Under the pieces are notes generated by a model, which saw only the letters and a program-made list of their open reading frames with translations, did no database searches and was not told where the DNA came from. Source: Crambe crambe (Eukaryota > Porifera > Demospongiae > Poecilosclerida > Crambeidae). From it: a DNA stretch of 64,000 nucleotides. The translations under genes and the position numbers were made by a program. Within the stretch, counting starts at the first letter, position 1, and every line of letters begins with the position of its first letter. Positions 5,640 to 59,050 of the stretch are shown one piece after another. The stretch spans positions 4,980,501 to 5,044,500 of the forward strand of contig OZ004586.1 of NCBI GenBank assembly GCA_963924555.1, read 5' to 3'.

Positions 5640-6610
5640 TGGTGCAATCACACTGTGGGTAGAATGAATACTTAGGACATGCTATAGCTAATTTTGTGAA
5701 ACAGTAATCAATCGGTGCTGTACCATTTTGATTGCGCATAAATCATCAAACTCCTTGACCATGATTTAAGAGGTTGATAAAAGTTGGACCACTGATTTCA
5801 AGTAGTTTTAATATGCCTGTGACCATGGTAGCATGAATATCATATGAGGCACTCGTTTGAAACCCCTTTTAATAAAGTACCGGCTGACTACATGTACAAG
5901 TAGGATCACTAGCCTCCTCTCTAAGTTTTTGCTGACAAAAAAGTGTGGTTATATTGAAGTGGGTGTGGTATCAAACATTTTTGTTCACATTTCACATGCT
6001 TTACTTGTGCATGTAATTATAGTTCCCCCCCCCCCCCCCCCTGCACCTCTGAGTGAGCAGCTTTATGCAATTTATACAGCCTCAGGCCTGTGGCCCTCAC
6101 TACCCTTCAGTGTGTAATAGCATAGAGAACTGCACCTCAGTGCACCTCAGTGTAGCCGAATAGAATTGAACCAGTAACAAAAATTGCTCGCATCAAATCT
6201 CCTTCTCTTAACATGCAGCTGTAGCTACATGTGAAAGCCTAAGATTTCTTTTTGAGTGTTACATAATATTATTGGTGCTGGAAACCATCCATTCCAATGT
6301 TGTATTCCATCATTGCAGTGATTGAAGCACATAATATATGTGTAAGCTATAGAGAACTCACCACTAAGTCATGAATGAATGCATGAATTGAATGCCATAG
6401 CTATTTTGTGCATATTTATATAACAAATCTACTGTGGTAGGACAAACACATGCTGGTTATATAAAGTCGTAACTTCCTCAAGAACTGGTCTATTGTAGGG
6501 GTGTGGCTGTAATGTCAATGATGGATAGCTATAGGTCTATAGCTAGCTAGCTACCATTTCATTTCAGCAAAAGTTTGGTGAGATCAAGACAAAGAAGAAG
6601 GCTGTGATCA
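5640..6610. other. Intergenic region between the two epimerase genes
   Basis: Holds the probable 3' UTR of copy A (aataaa at 5871-5876), a C17 run at 6025-6041 and AT-rich sequence with short agct/tagc runs. I see no other gene here. The promoter of copy B should lie in the last few hundred bases. Confidence 0.6.
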
Positions 6611-8380
6611 ATGTATTTTAGCATGAGGCTGTCTTGCAATTTGGGAGTACTTTTGGTTGCTATAATCTCTCACACCTGCCTGGGGAAAAAAATTTACACG
6701 ATACAAGATATGCATGTAGGAGACCTGAGGGCTTTGGTGTTGGTCAACCAGAAAACAGGTAAGCAGCTAGCTAGCCACACCATACTAAATTTGTTGTCAT
6801 AGGATTTTCAGATTACCTTGAGGGAGGGAGGTCAGTATTCAATATTGTACAAAAAATTAATCTAAAGCAAAATGTGGAGTGAGGTTTTAGCTACCATTGT
6901 TTATAGCTAATTTTTAATTCTTTTGTCTGGATGAAATACCTCATCAAATTTGGATAAGGAAAATTATGATAAACTCAAATTAAATTTGCCTGGACTATCA
7001 TTAGTAGCTATATAATAATAATTGTTGATACCCATAGCATGCATAGCTATAGATGGCTGCATGGCTCATGACAAGGCACATTTTTGAATGCTTAACGATA
7101 GGCAGATGGAACACTCTTGACATCATAGCTACCTAATCATGAATAGAAAGCTTGTGTACCATGCAGGGTAGCCAGCAAAAAAAAATTAAAAAATGCAGTA
7201 CTGAGGAGGAATTAAGCAGATGTCAATCCTTCTAGTTGTAGTCTCTCCACCACCATGTACCTAACTCAAATCATTGTGTAGGGGAGAAAGCGGAGATAAT
7301 AGTAGATTTTGGAGGTCGAGTGGAGAGCTTGGATCTGGCTTCACGGTCTCTGGGTGGAGAACCTAAACCAGTCCTGTTGACTCATGAAGGTGATTCTGCA
7401 GCCATTAAGGAGAACACATGGTGGATGGGAATGCTATTGGTGCCATGGGCAAACAGGATTGCATATGTAAGTTAGCTAGCTATTGTGGACAAGTTTTATC
7501 CAAGCTGTCCTTTACTGTAATTATAGTAACTACATTCTACCAGTAGCTACAGCCCAAAACTGTTAAAAATCAGCACACAGTTATTAGAATTAGCAATAGC
7601 TTCCTGCACACTAAGTTGACATGGTTATAATTGCTCACATAATAGGGAAGGTATACATTCTTCAATGCGACACACCAATTGCCACTGAACGAAAACTCAA
7701 CTAACCCCCCAAAGCAAAACTCCTTGCATGGGTTACTAGCCGGGAAGAAGATGGACATCATTGACCATTTGCATGATAATGAAAAGGCCATGCTCGTTCT
7801 AGGCCTTGACATCAAGGGAGCACAGGGATATCCATTTTCTTTCCATTATGAGGCTACTTACACTTTATCAAAGGAAGGATTTGACATAAAAATCACAGTA
7901 AAAAACATCATGGATCATGCCCCTCTTCCTCTTTATATTGGATGGCATCCGTATTTCGTTTGCTCCGTATACAAATCTGTGATCACGTTTGACCAGTGTA
8001 CAGGTTGGAACCACATTCAACTTAACAACAATTCAGATCCCACAGGAATCACTGATTTAGGTGCACCATTTGATGGAAACACTCCAATAGGAGGCACACC
8101 GGCCACAGCAACTGCTTATGATGATGGCTATAAGGCTACCGAACCAGCCTCGAAGTGTGGCATGATAGAAACAAAGTTATTCGATCCCGACACTGAAAAG
8201 ACCATCGTTCCTTACCAGAGTGAGAACATGAGATTCGTTCAAGTTTTCACTGGCCTACAAGGAGCAGTTGCCATTGAGCCTATGAGTGGAATGGCAGATG
8301 CTTTCAATAATCATGATCATCTCAGTATTCTCAGCGGATTAGAAACATGGGAGGCATCATTTGGTGTTTACCTCGAGTAG
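6611..8380 (+). CDS. Secreted aldose 1-epimerase-like protein B (tandem paralogue)
   Basis: Three exons, 6611-6758, 7282-7466 and 7646-8380, give 355 aa. A second in-frame ATG (MRLSC) at 6623 could be the real start; either way a signal peptide ending near HTCLG follows. Blocks are collinear with copy [40 protein letters not shown] and [13 protein letters not shown]. The third exon is strongly conserved with copy A, the leader and introns are not. This points to an old tandem duplication with selection on the enzyme domain. Both copies keep the conserved HPYF histidine and the Glu in the EPMSG block, so both are probably active mutarotase-like proteins. Confidence 0.92.
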
Positions 8381-27552: not shown

Positions 27553-30500
27553 CTAGATTTGTAGTTTAATAGAGTGCTCCATCATGAATATGTCATGTTC
27601 CTTACGAATGAGCTCTCCATCAGAAGCCCCATCAGGCCACGTAATATGTACATGGTTCATAAAACCTGGGTATCTGACCTCCCCCTCCAAGCCAGCCCAC
27701 TCATAGTCTAGTATGCACACCGTCCCATTCTCCCTGACCAACACATTAAGGTCACGAAAGTCACCATGGCATAGGTTTTCGTCATGCAATTTTGTAAGTG
27801 CATGTGTACATTGATCCAAAATGCTTTGTTTCTTGTCAGTCTCTTGTGATAAAAATTCATTAAGGTGTCTTCCTTCCACAAATTCCATGACTATCATCTT
27901 AAATCGGCTTGTCACAGGCTGACACAAGTGCAGCATTGGTGCACGGTCTATACTATGCAAGAGCAGGTGTGCTTCCTCACAGTACGCATCACAAAACTTG
28001 ATAACCACTCGTGCACCATTGAATGTCCCTTTGAAAAGATGAGGCTTCAACTGGGCTTCATACTTGATACCACCATTTTGATTAAATGCTGGAAATCTTG
28101 GATTTTCTATCAGACGTAGATTGTTGTAAAATTGGGTAATGGATTCAACTGCTTTCCTAAAAGATGCCAGCACCCGTGCTATCTTCAGCATTGCTAAGTT
28201 GTTTTGAGTTTGAGGGGTTAACCACAAGGTTGCCAGCCTGTCTACATAAATGCCTTCACCAAACACTGCTCCAGAGATGAACAGGTTAGGTCCAACCACT
28301 TCAATTATGAATGCTGGGAGTGAACATACATCATATGGTCTATACTGAAGGTCTCGAATATAATAAGACAGACACTCTGGGAAACTGTCTGCACCACCTG
28401 TTCCCACTTCATTCTTGAGTTCAATATAAATGTAATCATCCATCATAATGTCACATTTACTGTCACCAGTCTTGCTCACATCAATATTACTTTTGGGGAA
28501 ATACTTCTGTAAAACTTCAACTAAAGCATTCTTGCGGTCTAACTCAACGTTGTAGTGCTTTGCCATTTTAATACATAGTTCCAGGGCAAAGCTATAATCC
28601 TCTGAAGTGGGTTTGACTTGGTCACAGTTGTCCATGAAGTCTTGAAATTCACTGTAGTATAAAGAGACATCATTACCAACTTCACCTTCCCTGTGGTTGA
28701 GGATTGGTATTGCACAGAAATCACTGGCTTTGTTACAAGTGCTGACTAATTTGATTCCTCCATACTTTGAAGTGGGAGTAGTCAATTCAGCACAGTTCTG
28801 CAACTTTTCTTTTGCACCAGACAACTTGTAAGCTATATAATCAAAAGTGTGCAAGTGTAAGGAGCCAGTAATTTACATTAGGCTACTTAAACTAGCTACA
28901 TGTGTGCATGTAAACATGAAAGTCTCGATACAATCCCATATCAAAACAAATAGTTAGGTTCAATGACTGCTCAACACAGATTTGTGGGCTAAATTTCGCT
29001 GTATTTTTCCTAGCTAATAACTAATTTCTGTGTTGGCAGCTATAAGTGCCAAGACTTAGAGCTCTGGTCGTAGGTGGTACATAGTAGCACATGCAAAGAT
29101 TATGCATGAGGCTGGGCATGCCGATACTTCATTTTCAATAAAGTGACTTCGTTAAAATTAATTCAAGTTCTGGATAATAATTAAAATTCTGGACTGAATG
29201 AGTTGCATGTGATAGCAATATTAGTCCTAGGCTATACTTATAATAATGCAGATGTTTGATGTCACAGCATAGATAAGCATGCATATCATATTTTTAAAGA
29301 AAATCTTGTTAGCTCACAAATCTGTGTTGAGCAGCCAACTGTCCCTATTATCCCATGAAGAGTACAGAGAACCAGTCGGAGTGTAGCCAGATATCATGAA
29401 TGTCATTGAACTGCAGGGATGCATGGCAAACCATGGGCTAACTGTTGGATGCTCTTAGAAGACCAGCCATGGAAGCTTGCTCTTTCTATAGGCACTATCT
29501 ACGTAAGCTGTTTGTGCGAGAGGCATGGCATAGCATGCAGTAAAATGGACCATGGCCTGAGTTTGCTTCTAGTGTCTTTGGTCAATGTTGCTAAGCCATA
29601 CCAAGAAGTATGTGGTTACATAGATTTGTTGTACAGGCACTGTGTTAAATGATATATAACTAGTTCAGGCATGAGGCAGTAGTAATGTAGGTCCAACCTT
29701 GCAAGTAGACCATGCCATGCCATAACATATCCATTCATATTGTATGCTCAAGCTTGCCACATAACAGTGATTGCATAAACATGTAATGCCATGCTTACCA
29801 AATGAGAATGGCAAGTCCAATGAAAAATTTACAACAGGCACCTTCACATCCACTGTATTTCCATCATGTTTCACTGCCACCTTATCACAGTCTAACTTCC
29901 ACTTGCTTCCTTCAACCTGAATGAAAGACTTGAATTTGTCCACAACATCTGATACAGAGCTGGTTGCTCTAACTGTCATTTCCAGCCTTTCATCGGGTCG
30001 GTGGGCATAGATAATGTCTACTTTGACAGCTGCAATAGAGTTTAAGCTAAATGTGGAATTTATCACAATGAACCAATCAACTCACAGACTTCTGACACAA
30101 CATGCAAGCAACAGTCTATAGAGGTCTTCTCAAATAATGTGTGAATGAAAGTGTTATTCTTCACAACAGCACCCTCCAACAATGCAACATGATCTCCTGC
30201 ATTAATATCAAGCAACAGATCCCCCAGAGTTATTGTAGGTGGACACGTTATTTTCTTCTTAAGATCATTATTCACTTGTACAGCTAAACCTGATGAAAGA
30301 AGCAATTTGCCATGGTAATATTTTGCCAAGATAATGGCTGATATACAACTTACCAACTTCAGTGATGAAGATCAAGGGGTCCTCTGCATTTGTGCATGGT
30401 ATGCAGTCCAGTGGTGATAATACTTTCCCCCTGTGTTTGACTAAAACATCTTCTTTCAGTGAAATAGTAGAAGTGATGTGGTAAATCTTGATTGAGTCAG

Positions 30501-40557: not shown

Positions 40558-41700
40558 TTACACAGATGTGGAATTGGCCCAAACTATCTTCCCCTGTTTC
40601 TTGGTGAGGTCCCACGTCACATAGGTGCCTGATTTGAAATGCCTCATCACTTCATTGCTATTTTGTGTTGCTGGAGCAAGAGGATCTCCCAGAGGCTTGC
40701 TGAACTGCTCATCCCAACCATCACACCCAAGAATAGCTCCTTTCTCCACAGCCAGCAGGAACATGGCAAGTTCATTCTCATTGCATGAGGACTTGGTGCT
40801 AGTGCAGTCTCCATTGATGAGGTCTCTTGTCATAATGTAACAGTATGAATACATACTGAGAGATGCCTTGATGTCTTTGGCAAAACTAAGTGGTGATTTA
40901 ATGTCACCTAGTTTCATCCCTATCATCTTTGTTGTATTAAAGAATACGACTGCAGTTGGACCAAACATTTTATGAAGTGTTTCAAGGACTTGTGGTTTGC
41001 CTTTGTTGTACTCCTGTGCCGTCTCATTTGTGATTATTCCACAAGAGATGTTCCATGTGTTCCCTCCTCCTCCATACTCACACAGTTGCCAGAAAGATCC
41101 TGTTTCATTCCACTTGGCCAAAATATTATGCTTATCATCAAACAACCCATCAACATAGCCAGTATTGATCAGGTCCTGGACAAATCCTGTCCACAAATCT
41201 CGTCCGATTTGCTGGCTGAAATCAAAGACATTGATATTAGGCATGCCATTATCGTTCTTAAAGGCAATCAGTTTTCCATTGACATCCACTACATCAGCAT
41301 TGGCCTTTAAAAACTTCCCATGTAACTCTAGGAAAGGGAAGTCGTACAGAGTGTTGAGGTAGAACACAGCTGAGAGTTTGGGGTTGGCTGTCTTGGCCTG
41401 CTTGATGGTGTTCATCTGGTAGTTCTCTGCTCCACAAGATGGCTGACAGGGCACGGGAGGATTCTTGGTGAGATTACTGTAGCACTCGTACCAGCATGGC
41501 CCTTCCCATTTCTCAATCACAATGACACGCATCTTTGCCAACATTTGGATGTTGTCCTCTGACCTCTGCTTGCAGTTGACTCCTCCAAAGTAGCCAACTG
41601 GTATAGTGTCAAGTGAAGTGTCTGGAGGCGTGATGGCAGCAGCTTCTCCTAACATGACAGAGATGATACACACAAGCACTGCTACGAAGGACATCTTCAT
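40558..41700 (-). CDS. Secreted TIM-barrel glycosidase-like protein, copy 1
   Basis: Single-exon frame of 380 aa starting MKMSFVAVLVCIISVM, a clear signal peptide cleaved near GEAAA. The mature part opens PDTSLDTIPVGYFGGVNCKQ, has a Cys-rich segment near residues 60-90 (GPCWYECYSNLT, PCQPSCGAENYQ), the strand block LSAVFYLNTLYDFPFLELHG, then GYVDGLFDDKHN with acidic residues at the place of a glycosidase active site. It ends GTYVTWDLTKKQGKIVWANS. Several N-glycosylation sites are present. The layout resembles the hypothetical glycoside hydrolase family called GHL15, but I am not sure of this. Lack of introns among intron-rich neighbours is notable. One of three tandem copies in the same direction. 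Confidence 0.9.
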   Translation of the reverse strand: MKMSFVAVLVCIISVMLGEAAAITPPDTSLDTIPVGYFGGVNCKQRSEDNIQMLAKMRVIVIEKWEGPCWYECYSNLTKNPPVPCQPSCGAENYQMNTIKQAKTANPKLSAVFYLNTLYDFPFLELHGKFLKANADVVDVNGKLIAFKNDNGMPNINVFDFSQQIGRDLWTGFVQDLINTGYVDGLFDDKHNILAKWNETGSFWQLCEYGGGGNTWNISCGIITNETAQEYNKGKPQVLETLHKMFGPTAVVFFNTTKMIGMKLGDIKSPLSFAKDIKASLSMYSYCYIMTRDLINGDCTSTKSSCNENELAMFLLAVEKGAILGCDGWDEQFSKPLGDPLAPATQNSNEVMRHFKSGTYVTWDLTKKQGKIVWANSTSV

Positions 41701-42073
41701 TATGATTAGCTATATTATCTATAGTTACACATGTGAGGATAAGGTCACTTGGTGGTGCATGTGCCAGCTACCTATGTACATGCTAATGACTGCATCATGT
41801 GACTTCATGCAATGAATATCACATCACATGCAATGAATAATTAATAAGCTATTACTTAGTAACTCTTGAAGAATGCTTAAAATAATTATGGGGGTGCTAT
41901 TTGTATCGAAGCTAGGAAAATGTATATGAATAAAATTAATGATAGACCATCAACATAATAATGGGTGGCATGATTAAGATAATTATAATGGGATTCTGAT
42001 GCGTGCAATCATCTCATTCCGTTAATTATTAGTGTCTGTCTGTGTGTGTGTGTGTGTGTGTGTGCGTGTGTGC

Positions 42074-42159
<86 letters not shown>

Positions 42160-42452
42160 CTAGAATCCCATTAAATTTCACACCATACATTAATAAGGCT
42201 TGTGAAACCACGATACAATTATTGTTATTATGGGACATGAATGGCCTGAGGTAATACAAATAACACCCACTACTATAATGTCATCCAATGATGAGACACA
42301 TTTTATGCAAATGGATTCCCATAGAAAAATCATGATGGTTTACATCACAAATGTTCCTCTGGTATCAAAATGGATTAATTTTAATGAACACAAAACAAGA
42401 CAAAACAGTTAGGGAAGCAGCTATTGAAAAATATCTGGTCCAGTCATATTAT
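41701..42452. other. Spacer between copies 1 and 2
   Basis: Holds the promoter of copy 1. The stretch atcacatcacatgcaatgaa near 41820 recurs near 43675 upstream of copy 2. A long (TG)n array follows at 42041. Confidence 0.6.
42041..42157. repeat. (TG)n microsatellite
   Basis: About 58 TG units with a few C interruptions near 42064-42080. Frames through it on both strands are artefacts. Confidence 0.98.
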
Positions 42453-43595
42453 TCAAATAGAGGTGGAGTTTGCCCAAACTATCTTCCCTTGTTGCTTGGT
42501 GAGGTCCCATGTCACATAGGTGCCTGATTTGAAGTGCCTCGTCACTTCATTGCCACTCCTTGTTGCTGGAGCGAGAGGGTCACCCAGAGGCTTGCTGAAC
42601 TGCTCATCCCAACCATTACACCCAAGAATAGCTCCTTTCTCTACAGCCAGCAGGAACATGGCAAGCTCATCCTCACTGCATGAGGACTTGGTACTGGTGC
42701 AGTCTCCATCAATGAGATCCCCTGTCTGAACATAGCTATATGGATACATACTGAGAGATGTCTGGACATCTTTGGCAAAACTAAGTGGTGATTTAATGTC
42801 ACCTAGTTTCATTCTTGTCATCTTTGTTGTATTGAAGAATACGACTGCAGTTGGACCAAACATTTTATGAAGTGCTTCAAGGACTTGTGGTTTGCCTTTG
42901 TTGTACTCCTGTGCTGTCTCATTGGAGATTATCCCACAAGAAATGTTCCACGTGTTCTTTCCAGTGCCCCACTCACACAATTGCCAGAAAGATCCTGTTT
43001 CATTCCACATGGCCAAGATATCATGCTTGTCATCAAATAACCCATCGACGTAGCCAGTATTGATCAGGTCCTGGACAAATCCTGTCCACAAATCTCGTCC
43101 AACCTGCTGGCTGAAATCAAAGACATTGATATCAGGCATGCCATTATCATTCTTAAAGGCAATCAGTTTTCCATCGACATCCACTACATCAGCATTGGCC
43201 TTTAAAAACTTCCCATGTAACTCTAGGAAAGGGAAGTCGTACAGAGTGTTGAGGTAGAACACAGCTGAGAGTTTGGGGTTGGCTGTCTTGGCCTGCTTGA
43301 TGGTGTTCATCTGGTAGTTCTCTGCTCCACAAGATGGCTGACAGGGCACGGGAGGATTCTTGGTGAGATTACTGTAGCACTCGTACCAGCATGGCCCTTC
43401 CCATTTCTCAATCACAATGACACGCATCTTTGCCAACATTTGGATGTTGTCCTCTGACCTCTGCTTACAGTTGACTCCTCCAAAGTAGCCAACTGGTATA
43501 GTGTCAAGTGAAGTGTCTGGAGGCGTGATGGCAGCAGCTTCTCCTAACATGACAGAGATGATACACACAAGCACTGCTATGAAGGAGATCTTCAT
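42453..43595 (-). CDS. Secreted TIM-barrel glycosidase-like protein, copy 2
   Basis: 380 aa in one exon. I choose the start at 43595 (MKISFIAVLVC) because it lines up with both sister copies and begins the signal peptide; an in-frame ATG 51 bases upstream would put extra polar residues before it. Over 90 percent identical by eye to copies 1 and 3. Differences cluster in the C-terminal third: WGTGKNTWNISC against YGGGGNTWNISC of copy 1, and YPYSYVQTGDLIDGDCTS. All Cys and the GLFDDKHD acidic block are kept, so the copy looks functional. The long identical runs suggest recent duplication or gene conversion. Confidence 0.92.
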   Translation of the reverse strand: MKISFIAVLVCIISVMLGEAAAITPPDTSLDTIPVGYFGGVNCKQRSEDNIQMLAKMRVIVIEKWEGPCWYECYSNLTKNPPVPCQPSCGAENYQMNTIKQAKTANPKLSAVFYLNTLYDFPFLELHGKFLKANADVVDVDGKLIAFKNDNGMPDINVFDFSQQVGRDLWTGFVQDLINTGYVDGLFDDKHDILAMWNETGSFWQLCEWGTGKNTWNISCGIISNETAQEYNKGKPQVLEALHKMFGPTAVVFFNTTKMTRMKLGDIKSPLSFAKDVQTSLSMYPYSYVQTGDLIDGDCTSTKSSCSEDELAMFLLAVEKGAILGCNGWDEQFSKPLGDPLAPATRSGNEVTRHFKSGTYVTWDLTKQQGKIVWANSTSI

Positions 43596-44272
43596 TGTTA
43601 CACTTGTGATGGTCACTAATCTGACTGCATCATTCATGTGACTCATTCATGCAATGAATATGTACATCTAGCTATCACATCACATGCAATGAATATGGCT
43701 ATCTAGTTGATAAGTTATTACTCCAAGATATGGGGTGCGATTTGTATCAAAGTTAAATAGAGCATATAGCTACTACGATGGTTGACACTAAAATGATAAT
43801 TATGATGGGTGCCATTAATTTGTTCATCTCATTCATGCCTCATCATTATTAGCCAGCTAGCCAATGATAAAACATGAAGCCACGCTATCACATAATTATT
43901 ATGTACTCATCACTTCTCACATGATGCTTGAAGGCCAGGAACCCAAACCAGCAACATCACTCGTGTGTTTTCAAGGCCATATGTAATCTCCCAGTCCCTT
44001 GGTCCACAAACTGCTCATCAGCTGTTGTAGACGGGGTCCTATCACCATCGTGGATTCCCAGCCTTGTGATTATTGCATGCAGGATAGTGTGGCTTCATTA
44101 AATTTCCCATCATACAATAATGAGGCTTGTGATACCAGCATAATTGGACATGAATGGCATGAGGTAATAACACTAATAATGTCACCCGACTGACCATTTT
44201 CTTAGTTTTCCCATAGAAAAATCAGGTTAGCTACATCTGATCACAAATATTCCTCTGCTATCTAGCCTCGTC

Positions 44273-44615
44273 CCCAGGCTCTATTGAAAATAGAGCCTGG
44301 TATCAATTGTTTGCGCATGCATGTAGTATACAGGCAATAACCTGAAAGTTTACTGAGTGAGATTCCTTTCTCCTTTTCTTTATTATTTTTGTCCAGTTTT
44401 TCCATATCATTTGCTACTGCAGTACTTATGCTCAAAAGACTGTCTTTAGGCTGGTTTTATTGTTTGGTGCTCCAATTATTTTTTCACAAATAAACATCCG
44501 TTTATGGAGAGTGTATGAGGAATATACGGAAGCCTCAGACTTCCGAGGCTAATAAGTACAACTGATACCGGCTCTCTTTTAGGCAGGTCACAAAAGAGTG
44601 CCTGGGGCTGAGGCT
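44273..44615. mobile_element. Inverted-repeat element between copies 2 and 3
   Basis: Ends tagcctcgtccccaggct and the complement of gcctggggctgaggcta. A strong internal hairpin (ggctctattgaaaatagagcc) sits at 44277-44299. About 343 bases, noncoding. Confidence 0.65.
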
Positions 44616-44693
44616 ACTCTGGTATCAAGATGATTTTTTAAATAGTTAAACACAAAACAAAATAAAGCAATTAGGGAAGAGCAGTCATCTTTA

Positions 44694-45839
44694 TTAAATA
44701 GAAGTGGAGTTGGCCCAAACTATCTTCCCCTGTCTCTTGGTGAGGTCCCATGTCACATAGGTGCCTGATTTGAAATGCCTCATCACTTCATTGCCACTCT
44801 TTGTTGCTGGAGCAAGAGGGTCACCCAGAGGCTTGCTAAACTGCTCATCCCAACCATTACACCCGAGAATAGCTCCTTTCTCCACAGCCAGCAGGAACAT
44901 GGCAAGTTCATTCTCATTGCATGAGGACTTGGTACTGGTGCAGTCTCCATCTTTGAGGTCCCCTGTCATAACATAGTAGTATGAATACATACTAAGAGAT
45001 GTCTGGACGTCTTTGGCATAACTAAGTGGTGATTTAATGTCACCTAGTTTCATTCTTGTCATCTTTGTTGTATTAAAGAATACGACTGCAGTTGGACCAA
45101 ACATTTTATGAAGTGCTTCAAGGACTTGTGGTTTGCCTTTGTTGTACTCCTGTGCTGTCTCATTGGAGATTATCCCACAAGAAATGTTCCACGTGTTCTT
45201 TCCAGTGCCCCACTCACACAATTGCCAGAAAGATCCTGTTTCATTCCACATGGCCAAGATATCATGCTTGTCATCAAACAACCCATCGACGTAGCCAGTA
45301 TTGATCAGGTCCTGGACAAATCCTGTCCACAAATCTCGTCCGACTTGCTGGCTGAAATCAAAGACATTGATATCAGGCATGCCATTATCATTCTTAAAGG
45401 CAATCAATTTTCCATTGACATCCACTACATCAGCATTGGCCTTTAAAAACTTCCCATGTAACTCTAAGAAAGGGAAGTCGTACAGAGTGTTGAGGTAGAA
45501 CACAGCTGAGAGTTTGGGGTTGGCTGTCTTGGCCTGCTTGATGGTATTCATCTGGTAGTTCTCTGCTCCACAAGATGGCTGACAGGGCACGGGAGGGTTC
45601 TTAGTGAGATTATTGTAACACTCGTACCAGCATGGCCCTTCCCACTTCTCAATCACAATGACACGCATCTTTGCCAACATTTGGATGTTGTCCTCTGACC
45701 TCTGCTTACAGTTGACTCCTCCAAAGTAGCCAACTGGTATAGTGTCAAGTGAAGTGTCTGGAGGTGTGATGGCAGCAGATCCTCCTAACATGACAGAGAT
45801 GATAGTACACACAATCACTACTTCAATGGAGATCTTCAT
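44694..45839 (-). CDS. Secreted TIM-barrel glycosidase-like protein, copy 3
   Basis: 381 aa, one exon, starting MKISIEVVIVCTIISVM, with a signal peptide ending near GGSAA. The body is nearly the same as copy 2 up to GKNTWNISC and then resembles copy 1 in places (YSYYYVMTGDLKDGDCTS, KSSCNENELAMF), a mosaic pattern that fits gene conversion. The GLFDDKHD block and all Cys are kept. A poly(A) signal AATAAA directly overlaps the stop codon on the coding strand (near 44690-44696), so the 3' UTR may be very short. Substrate and activity unknown. Confidence 0.92.
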   Translation of the reverse strand: MKISIEVVIVCTIISVMLGGSAAITPPDTSLDTIPVGYFGGVNCKQRSEDNIQMLAKMRVIVIEKWEGPCWYECYNNLTKNPPVPCQPSCGAENYQMNTIKQAKTANPKLSAVFYLNTLYDFPFLELHGKFLKANADVVDVNGKLIAFKNDNGMPDINVFDFSQQVGRDLWTGFVQDLINTGYVDGLFDDKHDILAMWNETGSFWQLCEWGTGKNTWNISCGIISNETAQEYNKGKPQVLEALHKMFGPTAVVFFNTTKMTRMKLGDIKSPLSYAKDVQTSLSMYSYYYVMTGDLKDGDCTSTKSSCNENELAMFLLAVEKGAILGCNGWDEQFSKPLGDPLAPATKSGNEVMRHFKSGTYVTWDLTKRQGKIVWANSTSI

Positions 45840-46103
45840 GCTGTATAGAGTGGATGGTAACTTGGTTGTGTAAATTTCAGTACAACTGTATCATGTGATT
45901 GTAGTTATCAATATTCATAGCTACAATGAATGATTATTGTTAGCTAATAAGCTGTGTTTTCTGAGATCAGTATATCAAGTTATCACCTCTTCAACAGTAG
46001 CTACATGTAGACCGTTTGCTGAACAACTGAACAAAATCAGGTGAACTCTGTCTAATACACAACATAGCTATGAGTTCCTTCTGGCTTTGAAAGTAAAAAC
46101 TAT

Positions 46104-49424: not shown

Positions 49425-52400
49425 ATGGCAGAGTCCAAGGAGTATTCCACTATTTTGAACTGCAATAGGAAGCTAGAGATTGCTCTCAAGTCTGACAGGG
49501 ATATTGCACTGTTTCTCCTTCAGCAAGGATTCATCACACAAGAACGTTATGATGAAATTAACAATCCAAAGTCGAATCTGACGGATGATGCAAAAGCTAG
49601 TATGCTAGTGACTGCAATCAGAGACAGAGTTGAACTCAACCCTCGTAATTATCACAAAGTGGTTGATCATTTGCGTCAGAACATGATAAGATATGGAGAT
49701 ATTATAGAGATTCTTGATCAACAGTATCATCAGACCACAACTATAAGCAATCCAGGTATGAGTTTCAGAAGGGAACTAGCCCACCTCCCATTAGATAAGC
49801 TCTCTGATCAAATTAAATTGAGGAACTTAGCTATTTATGGAGATTACTTTTTTCTCATAGGCACTATGATGGCCACACCCTCTCCTCCTCCTCCTGTATC
49901 CAATGCCTCTCCCTTAACAACTCCTTCTATGACAGCCACACCAATCCCTCCTTCTGTACACATTGAGGGAGCCACCTCTCTGTTGGCCACGCCCTCCCCT
50001 CTTCCTGTACCCAATGCCTCTCCTTTACAAAGGTCTTCATGTGAGGGGACAACTTCTATGCTGGCCACCCCACCTCCCAGCAGTGACTCATTTTCAGCTT
50101 CCATAACACAGTCTTCTGTCGATCGTGCCACAATATCTAATGACAACTCAGGTAAGCTATGCTTGTGAAAAGTTATGTGATAGCTTGAGAAAAGGGTCTT
50201 ATGGAGCAAAAAATTCAAAACAGAGTTATTGGTACCATTTTAAAGAGTTCCTATATTCCTTATTAACAGGCTTTCATGTCTTGCAGATCCTTTTCTCAAA
50301 TACTATCACACAAGTACATTAGGTCAGATTACCCCAGGGGAATCCCCAAGGAAAACCCCAAGAATTTGGTGATTGAATGGCTGGATACACACTAGCATCC
50401 AAGGAAGTGTCATTCATCACACTACCTACAGTATCTATTGTCAGCCACATGTATTCCAGATGTAAGAAGTTTAGTTGAGCCTGCAAGAATAGAAGAGATA
50501 CAGAGAGTCCAGTTAGTATTGTTCTAATGAGAGAAGCCACACCCATTCCATACTAACCCTACATAGAGAGTGCTACCGCACTCTCTGATATCTAGGTCTA
50601 CGCTCCAAAATGCCCCAGGCAATAGTAGCACCCTGCACACATAATGCGCATGTTCAAATTGTAATCCCAAGATTGACTTCTACAGTACAGAGGTTTGCAC
50701 GGTTCTTGCACAAAAGCCTAGCTACTTGCTCGCTCGCTCGCTGTGACTCGAATGTTGTACATGACCAAGGGCAAGACAACTCAATCTTACTCTACTACTG
50801 GTACCTGTTTGAATATTCAAGTGTTTGTACAAACACTACATCGAGCTATTCCGTAATGGTCAAACAAGTCAAATGTGACCATCATTCCAATGTCCAATGT
50901 GGCAAAAAGTGGTATATGGTTGACAATATATGTGAATAGGTAGAGGTCATCAATTTAGATTTATTTGCAAACAACAATAAACTGGAGCCTTGGAAATGAA
51001 AAATGTAGCCAAATCAAACTACGCTAGCAATATAAAAAGTAAACAAAACAAGTGAAAGGAAAAAATTTATGCTAAATAAAAAAGGCCATGTAGGCTTAGT
51101 CTGTACTTTTACCTATAGCAGTTTCTGTGAACAAACATCAAGATTATGCTGCCTTCAATAATAATCCCTACATCACTGCCTAAACCAAGCAAAACTTTTA
51201 GACTGACATGAATAATTAAAGCAGCTTGGTGGGAGGCAGTGAAGTAGGGATTATTATTGAAGGCAGCATAATTTTGATGTTTGTTCACAGAAACTGCTAT
51301 AGGTAAAAGTGCAGACTAAGCCTACATGGCCTTTTTTATTTAGCATAAATTTTTTTCCTTTCACTTTTAATATTATTCAGCTATCTCTAGCTAGCTAGCT
51401 CTAGATAATGGACTACACTATCGACTCAGGGATTTTAGATTCACCAATCCATCTACCGGTAGAGCATCTTCAACCTCCAAGTATAGCTCCACCTTGACTC
51501 GTTGATAAATAATGATTGATTGAGCTGCTATGCTAATTCTTCTTTCATCTGTCCCTGCATACACATAGAAGAATGAACTCTATACATAGCTAAAACCATA
51601 AAAGAGAGGAAGAACAAGTAAGGGAAAAAACATTTCGTGAAATGAAAAAAAGATGTAGGGATGACCACTGCTCCAAAAAGTAAGGAAACAAGAAGGATGG
51701 AAATGGGATCAATCTTTGTTCTGTATATCCAGCCAACAATCCCTACATATACGTACATTATTGCACTATAATCTGAAGCTACCCGACGTATATGTAGGGA
51801 TTGTTGGCTGGATATACAGAACAAAGATTGATCCCATTTCCATCCTTCTTGTTTCCTTACTTATTTGAGCAGTGGTCATCCCTATACATCTTTTTTCATT
51901 TCATGAAATGTTTTTCCCTTATCTATTATGAGTTGTTTGTTTTCTTAACTGAGAAAGATTATATAACAATGTAATGTACAAACAATGATAGGTGGCCCTT
52001 CTCCTGTGTTAACTGAAAAAAATGTCAAAGTTATATTACTGAGAGCTGGAGTTGAGTGGACATTCCAGCTGTGTGTTGGAGGGCTTCGTTTGAGGGAGAA
52101 ACGCCTGAAGAAAGTGCAGAAATCCACCCCTGAGGAGAAGTGGAAGTTTACAATTGATTATTGGTTGAACATTGATCCTACCCCATCATGGAGGAGGATG
52201 ATATGTGCAGTGGACTATTATGCTAAACAGTATGAAGCTGCCTCCAGATTGTACCAGTATGCTGAGCCAGTGACAGGTATGAATCAGTTCGTAAAGGTGC
52301 ATGCTAACTTCATTGATGACTTAACCCTTCCAATGCAGATTCGACTCTCACTCTAGAGAATGTCCTGCTTGTATTGAAAGAAGTGAAAAACTTGACTATG

Positions 52401-55400
52401 CTGTGTAGATACCTACGAGTCCCAGAAAACAAGAGAAATCGAATTGATGAGACTGCTATTGCAAAATATTTCATTTTTTATTGTTGTCATCCAACTTGGT
52501 TGAAATTGGCTGGTAAGCTCTACTTCCTGAATGAAGATAGAGCTTTGGGAATTGTTCACAGATTCATACCCACTTCATCTCCAGGTGAGATTTTTTTTGT
52601 GTTCATGAGGAAATGGCACTTCAACAAAGCCAATATAGACTTTTACTTGCACAACTCCAGTGCATTTTCATCCATTCTTTGCCCAAAACGGCAGTGGCCA
52701 TAATGATATTTACTATAATTGTGTGACTAAAGGTTATTCAGAATCTGGGATCATTGTGATGAAGTTGGTATCTCTTTCATTTAGACCCAACTCTCACTGT
52801 GGAAAGTATGTATGAAGTTCTAAAGAAGGTTGACTGGAATCGTGGACTCCGTGGTGAAAAAATTGATATTCCGTGGTCCCAATGTACTGATATCAAGAAA
52901 CAATACAAGGGTAACCCGATTGAGTGTAGTAAAGTCCGTTATGAGTGGTATTTGGATTTCCACCCTGCCCCCTCTTGGGATCATATCGCTGAGGGTCTTT
53001 ATCAAGCAAGGGAACATTATATAGTGAAGCAAGTCGAAAGAAGACTAAAAGGTAATGATACTTACTTATAGCCTACTTGTGGTTAAGATCAAAGCACTGC
53101 TACTTGGTTGTAGTACAGGCACAACCACAGGGGTGATATTGATACAATTACCCAGGAAGTTGGTCAGGGTGATATTAGTTTATGATAACACAATGCCCAA
53201 ATAAGTATGGTTTACATTGCTCGGCTCTAGCAGTACTGTATTATTCTAGCTAGCCATTATGGTGCCAATAATAAACAATGGGGCTAACATTATCAATTCC
53301 CAAAGAATGGCAAATGAGATGTCTGGCGAATGAATAGGGTATTGAACAGCACTGAATCTTTGGCTGGCTGTTTAGGTCTCTTCTGGTTGCTTGATAAATG
53401 ATGTCAGACTCTTGACATTTCCATTATACAGCTGCTAGAAGACTTGCAGCTTGTCGCCAAGCCATAAAAGAGAAGACACCCATTGATGAAACAGTCGTTC
53501 ACAGTATTTTTTGTGGCTTAGCTGGATCTGGAAAAAGTTCTTTAATGAGCCGACTTGTTCGTGCAGATGCTGATAAAAATGTTACAGAAAGGACAATTAA
53601 ACTGGAAGAACCAAAGTTATCTAAATCAGTGGTTCTAGTGGAAGGTCTCAGTTGGAACAAACTGGATTTTATCAGTGAGGCTGATATGATTGCTAATAAA
53701 ATATCTCCCAGCACTTTATCTCGAGTGTCTAAACGAAGGAAAGATTCCTGGATCCATTACCTTTCTGATGTGAAGGGTCAGCCTGAATTCCAAGAGCATT
53801 TGCATGTGTTAATCTCTGGCCACTCTCTCTTCTATCACACTTTTAGGGCTGATGTAGACCTAGATGCTGAGATAGAACTGGAGCATCTCAGTCCAAGTGG
53901 AAAGTCCTTTAAGACAAGCACGACCACAAAAGAATCCATTTTGCAATTTCTTGCCACCATCTCTTCAATAGCAGTGACAAAGAAACCCCAGGAAGGAAAC
54001 CTGGCACAGCCAAAAGTGTTTTTCATTGCCACCCATGTCAATAAGTCAAAAGGCAAGATTAAGATTATCGATCAAAAACTGCAGGAGATTGTAAAAACAA
54101 CGAAGGCTTACAAAGATGGAATGGTTGTATATTGCTCAGAAGCCAGCATGTTGTTTCCTGTTAACAACTGCTCTGATAATGATAATGCTTTCAGGGACAT
54201 ACGAATTGCTGTAAACAGAGTGGTTACTGGCAACAAGGACTACCGCATTAGCGTTCCTCATACATGGTCTCTTTTTTCTGCCCGTATTCAGCACTTCACT
54301 GAACAAGTGTTATCTTATGATACTTGTCTTGCTGTGGGTAAGGAGTGTGGTATTGATACAACTGAAGATCTGGATAGCTGCCTTTGGTTCTTGCACCACC
54401 AAACTGGGATCCTTCGCTACTTCAAGGAGGTCCCAGAACTTCAAGATCTGATTATAAACAACCCACAGTATATATTTGACAGGATTACTGACTTGATTAC
54501 AAATACATTTATATTTGACAAGATTCGTGGTGACATGCGTATCAAGGATGAATTCAGCAAGAAAGGAATATTCTCTGTCGAAAGTTTTGAGAAGTTATCA
54601 TGTTCAGATGATCTATCATCTTCTCAGCTGATAAAGTTATTTGAGCATCTCCACATTATTGCCCCTGTGGAGAAGAGCCCAGATGGTGTTATAAAGAAAT
54701 ATTTTCTCCCTTGTGCACTCAGTCGCCTGGACAGTAAAGACACACCAGCTGCAGAAGTTTCTTCACAGTCTCACCCATCCTTATTCTTCCTCTTTGGCTG
54801 TGGTTACAGTCCATATGGTCTGTTTGGAGCACTAGTAACTGATCTTTTCCATCCGAGTCCAGATTCAGAATTTGAATGGACGTTCGAAAATGATGAAATT
54901 TTTCGCAATCAAATCTGCTTTTCTGTAGGTCCTTTATCTGACAAGTTCCAATTCACTGTAGCTTTGAATCATATTTGCATTGATGTTCTTCGTGAATCTA
55001 ATCAGAAAAAACCTGCATTATCCAAGATTTGTGATCACGTGAGACAACACATTGAAAATAGCCTATCAGATATGATCAGCGTACTAAACTATACCATCGA
55101 TCCAGAAGAAGCATTTCAATGTCCAATTCACAGCTCTCATCTTGCATACATACGCTTCTTTCAGAATAGACCACTTGCTTTGAAATGCTCTATTCAGAAT
55201 AAGACAACCGAATTTCCTGCAAAGTGTAGTATTTGGTTTGATGAGGTTAGTTCTTGAATTTGAATTTAAATAGTCAATAATTATAGATATACATTTTGTA
55301 GGCTGGACAAGGACTTACTTCTCATCTTGGTAAGTCAATAAATGAAATTATGTTGTTATGGTTCAATTCTATTGTATTCACAGGTATCGAAGATCTTGAG

Positions 55401-55842
55401 GATGTTATTGAAGAAGTTGGAGATATATCTGCCAAATGGAAGCAATTTGCTACAAAGTTACATCTTCATCCTGACTTACTCGACAGAATAGGAGTAGAGA
55501 ATCAAGGAAGTGTTGTCATGTGCCTCCGAGTGGCTCTGAAAGAATGGCTAAAGAAAAACTATAATGTGAAAAAATTTGGTGAACCCACCTGGAAGATGTT
55601 AGTGGATGCAGTGAAGGCTAGATATGGTGGGGCCGATACAGCCTTAGCTGAAAAGATGACAGAAAGTCTTATAGGTATGTAGTTGTAATGCAATTGTCTC
55701 AGCATTGAATGATATTTTATTAACTACAGCCAAAGAGAGATTGAAGGGGTTACCCCGCCAACATTCTGAACCACCACTATCAACGACACGTACTCAGGAA
55801 GTAAAAAAACCAGAAAAGGCTAGTAGTTTTGACCAATCTTAG
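49425..55842 (+). CDS. CARD / Death-like x3 / Roc-COR / Death signalling protein
   Basis: Eight exons in phase: 49425-50151, 51992-52276, 52339-52584, 52785-53051, 53432-55245, 55302-55329, 55384-55674, 55730-55842; 1256 aa, or 1221 if the 105-base segment 49756-49860 is spliced out. Residues about 10-100 look like a CARD (DIALFLLQQGFITQERYDEI, VVDHLRQNMIRYGDIIEIL), then a Pro/Ser/Thr linker. Residues 243-508 hold three Death-like units, one per exon, two of them with a PSW motif. Residues 509-1113 are Roc-COR: P-loop GLAGSGKSS (537-545), switch II DVKGQPEF (621-628), and THVNKS where THKD-like G4 is expected. A clear Death domain follows (about 1123-1215: WKQFATKLHLHPDLLDRI, CLRVALKEWLKK). 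Roc-COR-Death is also the C-terminal layout of DAPK1, but there is no kinase, ankyrin or LRR here. Likely an innate-immune or cell-death hub; partners unknown. Confidence 0.85.
49756..49860 (+). other. Possible in-frame retained intron in exon 1
   Basis: gtatgag at the left and ttctcatag at the right make a good GT..AG pair. Its length of 105 is divisible by three and it has no stop, so splicing or retention both give a full protein. It separates the CARD from the Pro/Ser linker. Confidence 0.5.
51050..51369. mobile_element. Long-arm inverted-repeat element in Death-ROCO intron 1
   Basis: Two arms of about 130 bases (tttatgctaaataaaaaagg ... gcagtttctgtgaacaaac) in opposite direction around a 50-base centre. 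Arms differ at only a few positions, so insertion is recent. It would form a strong hairpin in the pre-mRNA. Confidence 0.92.
51618..51922. mobile_element. Second long-arm inverted-repeat element in intron 1
   Basis: Arms of about 135 bases: agatgtagggatgaccactg and atccagccaacaatccctac on the left, complements on the right, around a 30-base centre. Different sequence from the element at 51050, but both contain a tagggat/atcccta box. Confidence 0.92.
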
Positions 55843-56496: not shown

Positions 56497-59050
56497 CATT
56501 CCTCCCCACCAAAATAGGGAGCTCCACACAACAAAGATTAACAGTAGTCAATGATACCTGTCAGGTGGGTGCCAAGTTCGTCTTGGATAACAAGGAGTGG
56601 AATTATTCTCAGAACCAGCCTCAGTGGGTGTCATGTATAGTGGAGAATGACTCCCACTAGCTTCAGCAGGGTCAGGCTCAACAGGAGGTGGAGGACTATT
56701 GTCAATAGACAACAGCACTTCATCACTAGGTTCATCAATAAAGGGTCCTCCTCTGGAACATCCTCCGGATCTGTTCGATCAACAATGGGTGTTACATTGA
56801 CTTCCTTTAGAGCTGATCCATGTGACATCTCCAGTGTTGATGATGCTGATGCTGTATATGGTATGACAGAGGACCAAGTCTCTGAATAATGACAGCGGGA
56901 ATCCATGCTGGTTCAGCTCTCAAGTTACAGCCTGTCCTACAAACCAGGACCTATCTTCAGCTTTGCTGGTCATCTTCTGTCGAGATTGCTGATCCAGAAC
57001 AGTGGCTTCAGTAGAAAGTCAAACGCCTTTTTATCAAGAAGGTGGCGAATTCATCATCAATAAACTGAGATCTATTGTCACAAACAGCCCAGCTAAATCA
57101 CAATGTACACGTTGCCACAGCTTTGCAGCCCACACCCAGGGGTGTAGTGGTGCAACTGGAGGGGTATCATTGACAGATTGACAAGACTGGCAATTATTGG
57201 TGATTCTCTCAATATCCTTGTCAACTCCAGGCCACCAGAAGTAGCTCCTGGCAACCGATTTCATTCATGATATCCCTGGATGATCATGGTGTAATAACTT
57301 CGATTGCAGTTTAGTGGGAATCACAGCTCTAATTTCCCATAGGAGACAGTTGTAAACTATAAGGTCGCAGTGTAGCTAGTATCCACATTCCATGGCCATT
57401 TCCCCTTCATGTAACAAAGTACTTACCACATCTGTAGCAGTAGCATTCTTCAGTTGTGCAGCTGTGCAGTTGTGACTGGTAGATTATTCAATCGAGTGAT
57501 ATTGAACACACTGGTTTCTGTGGCAGAAATTGCTCACTCTCTTTCAGCGGCAATCTAGATAGGCCATCAACATTCCCGTGAGCAGTGGTTGGCATAAATT
57601 CGATGGTATAGTTATACGCTGCCAGCAGAATGGCCCAGTGTTGAAGACTGCAGCTAGAGGAGGAATACCCTTCTTGGGTCCAAGTATTGCCGTCAACGGT
57701 TTGTGGTCAGTTACGACTGTAAATGAGCGTCCATAAAGATAAGAGTGACTCCAAATATCAAGGAGGAAGCCTCTTTTTCAACTTGTGGGTAATTGCGTTC
57801 ACTCTGAGTCAAGGCAATTGGGTGTTTGCTGCCATCAGGTATAAAGGTGAGAAATGACTGCACAAATATCATATGCAGACACATTTCCAGCCAGAGATAT
57901 CATAATGAACAAGACACCAACTTATCCTTGGCAGACTTGAAGGCTTGTTCACATTCCAGTGACCATTTCCATCGGTTATCTTTACAGGGAAGTCTATTCA
58001 ACGGATGCAGTATGGAAGCCAGGTTAGGGATAAATCATCCATAATAATCCCAAGAATGACCTGAGCTTGCACATTTTTCGGAGCCGGTGCACCGGTAATT
58101 GCCTGAAGTTTACTTTGTGTTGTTGCATCTGCATCAATTTTTATGTCTGAGGTATTCAACACTGGAACACATAAACTTACACTTTGCCCGTTTTAGATGA
58201 ACACTATGATTCTGTAGACATTGCAACACTTTTTCTACCTCCAGAAAGGGTAGCTAGCAAATAAATCTTCCGGTCAAGATAAGGGGTATTGCTCTACATC
58301 CATTTGAGGGTTAACGGTGACAGATCCGATCTTTCTTTGGTACTGCTACTATGGGAGCAGCCCAAGTGACCTTCTCTAGCATGCCTTCTTGTTCAAGTCG
58401 GACCTCAACAGCATGCAAACGGTATGGACCTTGGCTTGTAAAACTTGGGGAGACATCTTTCAATACCATCAAGGTTCTATTGTGCCAAGACCTTTGGAAA
58501 ATACCTCATCACCCCCTGAAGTCTTTCCTGAGGGTTCCGAGACAGTGAGACAGTAGCAATCACCTTCCTATCGAGCCGAACATGGTGTAACCAATCACAG
58601 CCAATCAAACAGGACCATTCCCCTTCACAATCACTACATCCAATTTCTTTGGAGGTTGTTGGTCACACTGTAGCTACAGTCACAGGTAGCTCTCCTAACA
58701 CTCATTCGTTCCCCAGTGTAGGTCTTCAAAATCACTTATGATGGATGAAGTGTAGCATCTGGCAAGGAGTGGAACACCTGTTCAGATAACAAAGAAACTG
58801 CAGCTCCAGTGTCAACATCCATCACCACAGGTTTACCATCAATGAGTAGCTCTACCCGAAAATGGGTCGTGAGAATGTCTCCAACAAAGAAGAGACCCAT
58901 ATCTCTGGTCACCAGCACTGATGGAAGGTGACGTCTCTACGTATAGCGTCCGAGACCCTGACTTTTTTCCAGATGAGGAACGTTTCCCAGTTTGCTTGGA
59001 CTTGCAAACAGTCGAATATGGCCAGTTTAGCCTCACGAAACTAGTCAGCA
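56497..59050 (-). pseudogene. Decayed Ty3/gypsy-type retrotransposon, pol part
   Basis: Minus-strand remains in the usual order. An aspartic protease at 58736-58918 has the DTGA active-site motif (VVMDVDTGAAVSLLSE). A heavily frameshifted reverse-transcriptase region spans about 57850-58600. RNase H at 57660-57735 reads FTVVTDHKPLTAILGPKKG. A spacer block AHGNVDGLSRLP follows near 57550-57590. An integrase zinc-binding region at 57034-57264 has the CQSC half of HHCC (RSYFWWPGVDKDIERI). A purine-rich run near 56500 (complement of cattcctccccacc) could be the polypurine tract before a 3' LTR. Many stops and shifts: not functional. No matching 5' LTR was found. Confidence 0.85.

What the first reader, a model, noticed from the sequence alone, without database searches (positions are those of the whole stretch)
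49425..55842. CARD with three Death-like domains, Roc-COR and a terminal Death domain in one gene
Seen: eight exons in phase; P-loop GLAGSGKSS; DVKGQ switch II; a clear Death domain at the C terminus; three upstream exons, each phase 1-1 and each a Death-like unit. Known: DAPK1 ends Roc-COR-Death, and ROCO proteins usually carry LRR or kinase. Inference: a death-fold scaffold gated by a GTPase, with adaptor (CARD) and Death contacts at opposite ends. I know of no described family with this order. This is my main candidate for an undescribed system.
Basis: partly seen in the sequence, partly recalled or inferred. Interest (0 to 1): 0.85.

Follow-up and report, generated by a model that had tools for sequence, protein, structure and literature searches.

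The report
ROCO gene with NLR-type CARD exon
This animal gene appears to join a caspase-recruitment-type domain of the kind used by the same genome's NLR immune receptors to a GTPase scaffold flanked by death domains; the scaffold belongs to a large gene family of a known kind, and the borrowed front domain is the unusual part.

Summary
The eight-exon reading holds: GT-AG junctions, matching phases, 1256 aa. Exons 2-5 and 7 (three Death-type units, Roc-COR, terminal Death) form a conserved gene: exon 2, 3, 4, Roc-COR order occurs in 10 of 11 close copies, this one included. Of 88 exon-4-type units, 80 have a Roc/COR match within 20 kb downstream; 298 Roc/COR places were counted from capped lists. 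So the body is an expanded ROCO-Death family, akin to DAPK1's tail and to published placozoan CARD/Death ROCO proteins (PMC4104024).

The CARD-type exon is the odd part. Its nine best matches are 84-89% identical; of 100 matches, 31 have a listed NACHT within 15 kb downstream and only this one has Roc/COR within 30 kb. It pairs with an NLR's exon in a tree (0.79), is under strong purifying selection (dN/dS 0.09-0.13) and keeps its donor. The closest ROCO paralogue has a Death exon there instead. Best reading: an NLR-type CARD exon shuffled onto a ROCO-Death gene. No transcript was available; two adjacent genes remain possible. New variant of a known kind.

The parts
49425..50151 (+). Exon 1: CARD-type domain (aa 1-103) plus a Pro/Ser/Thr-rich linker; phase-1 donor
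   Evidence: CARD weak in Pfam and in the PDB profile search; six-helix model pLDDT 77 whose first four Foldseek matches are CARDs, E 0.6-0.7; dN/dS 0.09-0.13 against nine relatives; similarity reaches the donor in 5 of 9 relatives
50152..51991 (.). Intron 1 (inferred), 1840 bases, holding two long hairpins of MITE type
   Evidence: Inverted repeats 51055-51360 and 51645-51895; 51623-51918 has 39 other copies at 96-97% among the 40 places scored of 1704 candidates
51992..52276 (+). Exon 2: Death-type unit 1, phase 1-1
   Evidence: Profile match to the exon-4 family, probability 97.3; 70% identical in the C6 paralogue; DNA similarity 51988-52277, so with the bases before the acceptor edge and the donor G
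52339..52584 (+). Exon 3: Death-type unit 2, phase 1-1
   Evidence: Profile match to the exon-4 family, probability 98.1; 11 genome matches, all in the 11 close copies
52785..53051 (+). Exon 4: Death-type unit 3, phase 1-1, next to Roc
   Evidence: 4 of 15 relatives match Pfam Death, best 9.2e-5; 80 of 88 genome hits have a Roc/COR match within 20 kb downstream, 5 upstream
53432..55245 (+). Exon 5: Roc-type P-loop GTPase region and COR
   Evidence: COR-A 5.3e-9, over cut-off; G1 GLAGSGKSS, G3 DVKGQ, G4 position THVN (motif names recalled)
55302..55329 (+). Exon 6: short linker exon
   Evidence: inside the stretch similar to the C6 paralogue, 53430-55352
55384..55674 (+). Exon 7: terminal Death domain
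   Evidence: Pfam Death 1.9e-4 alone, 22.0 bits against 22.6; 61% identical in the C6 paralogue
55730..55842 (+). Exon 8: C-terminal tail and stop
   Evidence: no relative found in the loci searched, the C6 locus L032 among them

Best explanation
A cytosolic ROCO-Death protein of an animal (probably a sponge, inferred) in which the N-terminal module is an NLR-type CARD exon gained by phase-1 exon shuffling. Likely mechanism: the Roc-COR pair is a nucleotide-dependent dimerisation switch; the three Death units and the terminal Death domain hold it in, or recruit it to, Death-fold complexes; when released, the CARD nucleates the same CARD assembly (adaptor and caspase) that this genome's CARD-NLRs use. 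With no LRR or other sensing domain matched it is more likely a relay or co-scaffold than a direct receptor. Shown: exon order, homologies, selection, conserved splice edges. Inferred: the exon 1-2 splice, the direction of the exon transfer, the shared CARD partner, the GTP switch, the immune or cell-death role. The confidence given is for the fusion and its origin; for the mechanism as a whole I would say about 0.35.
For: Gene model in phase. Exons 2, 3, 4 and Roc-COR in the same order in 10 of 11 close copies, the window included; the C9:4615898 copy lacks a listed Roc; a listed terminal Death follows in 7 of 11. CARD exon: 31 of 100 have a listed NACHT within 15 kb downstream against 2 with the strand flipped; the closest relative, C10:7252906 at 89%, is followed by frames with NACHT (2.8e-13) and LRR (3.3e-13). 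1 of 100 has Roc/COR within 30 kb downstream, this one; 3 of 100 have one upstream. Trees: the CARD pairs with C10:7252906 (0.79), the pair being sister to the other eight close relatives; Roc-COR pairs with the C6 copy (0.996). Similarity of exon 1 to its relatives begins one or two bases before the ATG in 9 of 9 loci and reaches the donor in 5 of 9. The CARD relative's next exon begins at what looks by eye like a phase-1 acceptor. In C6 a Death exon over the Pfam cut-off with a possible phase-1 donor stands upstream of exon 2, and no CARD match was found there.
Against: No RNA evidence. The exon-2 acceptor here has a poor pyrimidine tract (by eye) and lies 73 bases after a MITE-type insertion; an in-frame ATG at 51985 would let the ROCO part start alone. 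AATAAA or ATTAAA lies at 50976, 51075 and 51215. No other Roc/COR place found has the CARD, so the join has no second example. The tree support for the CARD pairing is moderate (0.79). The G4 position reads THVN where relatives have THVD or THID, so guanine binding may be weakened in this copy. Pfam's Roc model does not match the window protein, and phmmer finds no solved Roc-COR relative at E up to 1.
Confidence: 0.66

Rival explanations
1. Two neighbouring genes: a short CARD-only gene (exon 1, read through its donor or spliced to an unseen exon) and a separate Death-Roc-COR-Death gene starting at the ATG at 51985. The CARD gene would be a decoy or small adaptor left from an NLR duplication.
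For: In-frame ATG at 51985, and a stop codon at 50166-50168 if the exon-1 donor is not used; polyA-like signals in between; 1840-base gap with two hairpin insertions; the CARD is not found with any other Roc/COR place.
Against: The exon-1 donor is kept in 5 of 9 relatives compared, and the edges of exon 2 are shared with C6; phases match; the C6 copy has a Death exon with a possible phase-1 donor upstream of its exon 2.
Confidence: 0.24
2. A fused but regulatory protein: the changed G4 motif leaves Roc locked or nucleotide-free, so the protein is a dominant-negative or tuning partner for the CARD-NLRs instead of an activator. (A variant of the best explanation; its odds overlap with it.)
For: THVN instead of THVD/THID in the G4 position; the CARD is well conserved.
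Against: P-loop and DxxG are intact; dN/dS of Roc-COR against C6 is 0.30, that is, constrained.
Confidence: 0.2
3. Exons 1-4 are not death folds and the likeness is chance.
For: No Pfam match for exons 2-4 and a CARD score far under cut-off; a FumaraseC_C model matches 9 of 19 CARD-family members, CARD 8 of 19; exon 2 against the terminal Death gives only 4.8% and the CARD family against it 0.9%; the exon-4 model has pLDDT 56.
Against: Relatives of exon 4 reach Pfam Death at 9.2e-5 (4 of 15); exons 2 and 3 match its profile at 97.3 and 98.1, exon 4 matches the terminal Death at 75.6; fold matches rank CARDs 1-4 and Death domains 1-8, although no E-value is under 0.1.
Confidence: 0.04

Closest known systems
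Trichoplax adhaerens ROCO proteins (PMC4104024; passages, section 5 part 1 of 2 and figure legend read)
   Same: Roc-COR with CARD and death domains among the flanking domains; a multi-gene expansion in an early-branching animal
   Different: The exact orders lie in a figure that I could not see; at least 17 genes there, 298 Roc/COR places counted here; a link of the CARD to NLR exons is not described in the parts I read
DAPK1
   Same: Roc-COR followed by a C-terminal Death domain (recalled)
   Different: No kinase and no ankyrin repeats matched here; Death units and a CARD-type domain in front instead
CARD-NLR gene of the same genome at C10:7252906
   Same: CARD exon 89% identical, similar Pro/Ser/Thr-rich tail, donor in the same phase
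   Different: It is followed by NACHT and LRR frames; this gene continues into Death units and Roc-COR
Amphimedon TRADD-N proteins (PMC8195603; passages and section 10 read)
   Same: 1-3 Death-like domains in an N-terminal unit followed by a variable C-terminal part
   Different: No TRADD-N domain identified in this gene (not specifically tested); Roc-COR is not among the C-terminal domains listed in the section I read
Brown algal LRR-ROCO genes (PMC11378527; abstract, passages and section 10 read)
   Same: ROCO genes diversified by exon shuffling, proposed immune receptors
   Different: There the LRR exons are shuffled; here an N-terminal death-fold exon is exchanged

Membership tests
ROCO | COR domain | tested here: met
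   COR-A 36.5 bits against cut-off 35.3, aa 784-921
ROCO | Roc GTPase directly before COR | tested here: inconclusive
   G1 and G3 motifs in the right order before COR, but no Pfam Roc match and G4 changed; a distant same-genome relative (25% identity, E 3e-19) matches Roc at 1.7e-4, 22.2 bits against 27
DAPK1 | Kinase and ankyrin repeats before Roc-COR-Death | tested here: not met
   No kinase or ankyrin match in the 1256 aa at E up to 10
DAPK1 | Death domain after COR | tested here: met
   Exon 7, Death 1.9e-4, though 22.0 bits against 22.6 is just under cut-off. In the genome, best-150 Death hits lie within 4 kb downstream of 28 of 201 Roc/COR places and upstream of 0; within 8 kb 32 and 2
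NLR | NACHT and LRR | tested here: not met
   No match in the full protein at E up to 10
CARD | Recognisable CARD sequence profile | tested here: inconclusive
   13 bits against a cut-off of 23.9; 8 of 19 relatives match at E up to 1, best 0.0012; profile of the family hits Apaf-1 chains in 8 of 17 rows, best E 0.0098
CARD | Six-helix death fold nearest to CARDs | tested here: inconclusive
Death domain (exons 2-4) | Homology to Pfam Death | tested here: inconclusive
   No direct match; 4 of 15 exon-4 relatives match, best 9.2e-5; exon-4 profile against terminal Death 75.6, exon 2 against terminal Death only 4.8
TRADD-N proteins | TRADD-N domain | not tested
   No TRADD-N model was run as such

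The most novel reading that the evidence does not exclude
NLR and ROCO genes of this animal draw their N-terminal signalling exons from one shared pool of phase-1 death-fold exons, so that hundreds of NACHT-LRR and Roc-COR scaffolds form one combinatorial intracellular repertoire wired by exon exchange to common CARD and Death adaptors. The window gene would be the first seen direct bridge between the two.
Probability: 0.3. Interest if true: 0.75.

Novelty: new variant of a known kind. Interest (0 to 1): 0.5.

Why it matters
ROCO proteins such as LRRK2 and MASL1 are reported to be upregulated on infection while the mechanism stays unclear (PMC4104024, section 5 part 1). A gene that carries an NLR-type CARD in front of Roc-COR gives a direct, testable link between a ROCO switch and a CARD pathway. 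It also suggests how early animals could rewire receptors by exchanging single signalling exons.

Tried and rejected
A categorically new system was rejected: the body of the gene belongs to a large same-genome family, and CARD/Death ROCO proteins are in print.

A decaying CARD remnant was rejected: dN/dS 0.09-0.13, no stop in the exon, donor kept. Among the nine relatives themselves the mean dN/dS is 0.24.

Shared promoter or segmental copy of the CARD region: apart from simple-sequence matches, no similarity further than two bases upstream of the ATG in 9 of 9 loci, so the direction and age of the transfer rest on the tree and on the rarity of the CARD among Roc/COR places.

Extra domains between exon 4 and Roc in the C9 array: one gap read (C9:4443300-4452199, frames of 90 aa or more) shows retrotransposon-like frames, judged by eye. 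N-terminal exon of the array copies: 7.4 kb before one copy read (frames of 70 aa or more), nothing CARD- or Death-like seen by eye. A further C6 frame upstream of the Death exon, which I first took for a Death unit, has no Pfam match.

My first Roc list missed the C11 family, so the pairing of exon-4-type units with Roc was redone with a third search: 10 of the 80 pairings rest. For that C11-type group I read one gene; its Roc and COR-A matches are under their cut-offs (22.2 against 27, 16.4 against 35.3 bits), and the link to the window's Roc-COR is 25% identity, E 3e-19. The lists are capped: candidates scored were 117 of 447 (Roc), 150 of 339 (COR), 98 of 469 (C11-type Roc), 103 of 232 (NACHT) and 150 of 484 (terminal Death), so pairings are lower bounds; the lists for exons 1, 2, 3 and 4 had all candidates scored. 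The 298 places are not checked for being whole genes. For one search, 84 of 150 COR hits were pasted, the rest dropped by eye as duplicates; one search checked that all 150 fall in the merged set of 298. The 201 places hold none of the C11:1.6-3.9 Mb array. Only 4 of the 9 CARD relatives used are shown to be followed by NACHT (L022; L024, L028, L029); the other five are CARD exons of unread context. The fold library cannot settle CARD against Death for exon 1, and the exon-4 model is poor. phmmer of Roc-COR against solved structures gave nothing.

Full report
What is there. The eight exons reported are in the sequence: 49425-50151, 51992-52276, 52339-52584, 52785-53051, 53432-55245, 55302-55329, 55384-55674 and 55730-55842, all introns GT-AG, end phases 1,1,1,1,0,1,1, 1256 aa. 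The window lies in an unnamed 143 Mb assembly of 119 contigs (contig C9, 4980501-5044500). By its gene content I take it for a demosponge, probably Amphimedon; that is inference, not tested.

The ROCO part is one conserved gene family. Of 51 exon-2 matches 11 are strong (E 2.7e-23 or better, the next 3.1e-7), and the 11 exon-3 matches lie in the same 11 genes: the window, one on C6, nine in a tandem array at C9:4.32-4.82 Mb. With exon 4 and Roc 10 of 11 show the order exon 2, 3, 4, Roc-COR; a listed terminal Death follows in 7 of 11. The C6 copy is closest: exons 2-4 at 70, 69 and 79%, Roc-COR 60%, Death 61%, pairing with the window at 0.996. More widely, 80 of 88 exon-4-type units have a Roc/COR match within 20 kb downstream (5 upstream), and three capped searches merge to 298 Roc/COR places, not checked for being whole genes. 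Of the 80 pairings 70 rest on the C11-type query. One C11 gene was read: exon-4-type unit, Roc-COR-like exon with sub-threshold Roc and COR-A matches, Death-like exon; its Roc-COR is 25% identical to the window's, E 3e-19.

The CARD exon belongs to another gene class. It has 100 genome matches, the best nine 84-89% identical. Of the 100, 31 have a listed NACHT within 15 kb downstream (flipped-strand control 2), 1 has Roc/COR within 30 kb downstream, this one (3 upstream). The nearest relative is followed by NACHT and LRR frames, though its NACHT is not in the capped list. In a tree the window CARD pairs with that relative (0.79), the pair being sister to the other eight. Similarity begins one or two bases before the ATG in 9 of 9 loci and runs to the donor in 5 of 9. 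dN/dS is 0.09-0.13 at dS 0.40-0.97, against 0.48, 0.52, 0.20, 0.30 and 0.45 for exons 2, 3, 4, Roc-COR and Death against C6.

One gene or two. A kept donor, a shared exon-2 edge, matching phases and, in C6, a Death exon with a possible phase-1 donor upstream of exon 2 favour one gene. Against: no RNA, a poor acceptor, polyA-like signals and a usable ATG, and two hairpin insertions in the intron. I put the fusion at about 0.75.

How it may work. A Roc-COR unit as a nucleotide-dependent dimerisation device is a model given in PMC4104024 (section 5 part 1). Here dimerisation would bring CARDs together and start the CARD assembly that the CARD-NLRs use; the Death units would gate or dock the scaffold. 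The G4 position reads THVN where the C6 copy has THVD and the four array copies aligned have THID, so this copy may bind nucleotide poorly; that leaves a regulatory role open. That G4 matters for guanine binding is recalled.

Compared with what is known. Trichoplax ROCO proteins carry CARD and death domains (PMC4104024; passages and section 5 part 1 read). Teng and others report as many as forty ROCO domain combinations in animals, N-terminal death domains in some organisms, and exon shuffling of LRRs in brown algal ROCO genes (PMC11378527; abstract, passages and section 10 read). Kaur and others (authors' names recalled) report 357 Amphimedon TRADD-N proteins, mostly with N-terminal Death-like units and variable C-terminal parts (PMC8195603; passages and section 10 read). 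The Dysidea avara NLR paper reports 20 CARD-NLRs and 25 Death-NLRs (PMC12909245; passages read). My ten searches listed no title or abstract on a sponge ROCO expansion or on CARD exons shared by NLR and ROCO genes; subscription journals are mostly not covered.

Verdict. Observation confirmed; new variant of a known kind; the sharing of an N-terminal exon between NLR and ROCO genes is the part worth following.

Noticed in passing
window 51055-51360 and 51645-51895: Two long near-perfect hairpins (127- and 110-base arms, 95-96% complementary) in intron 1; 51623-51918 folds strongly and is a high-copy element, 39 other copies at 96-97% among the 40 places scored of 1704 candidates.
   Followed up: partly
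L069 (C11:3304272-3313271) and C11:1.59-3.84 Mb: A tandem array with 39 Roc places on C11, one read as exon-4-type Death, Roc-COR-like, Death-like; relatives on C15, C10, C5, C8, C1 and others.
   Followed up: partly
window 40558-45890: Three tandem minus-strand copies of a GHL15-type glycosyl hydrolase, secreted-looking by eye.
   Followed up: no
window 4893-8380: Two tandem frames of aldose 1-epimerase type.
   Followed up: no
window 27553-28872: A 439-aa open frame ending in a kinase/RIO-like domain after a long part without a match.
   Followed up: no
window 57034-57706, minus strand: Retrotransposon-like frames (integrase and RNase H motifs by eye) downstream of the gene.
   Followed up: no
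C9:4615898-4625164 and C9:4539451: Array members that look incomplete: one without a listed Roc and with a partial exon 4, one Roc fragment with stops.
   Followed up: no
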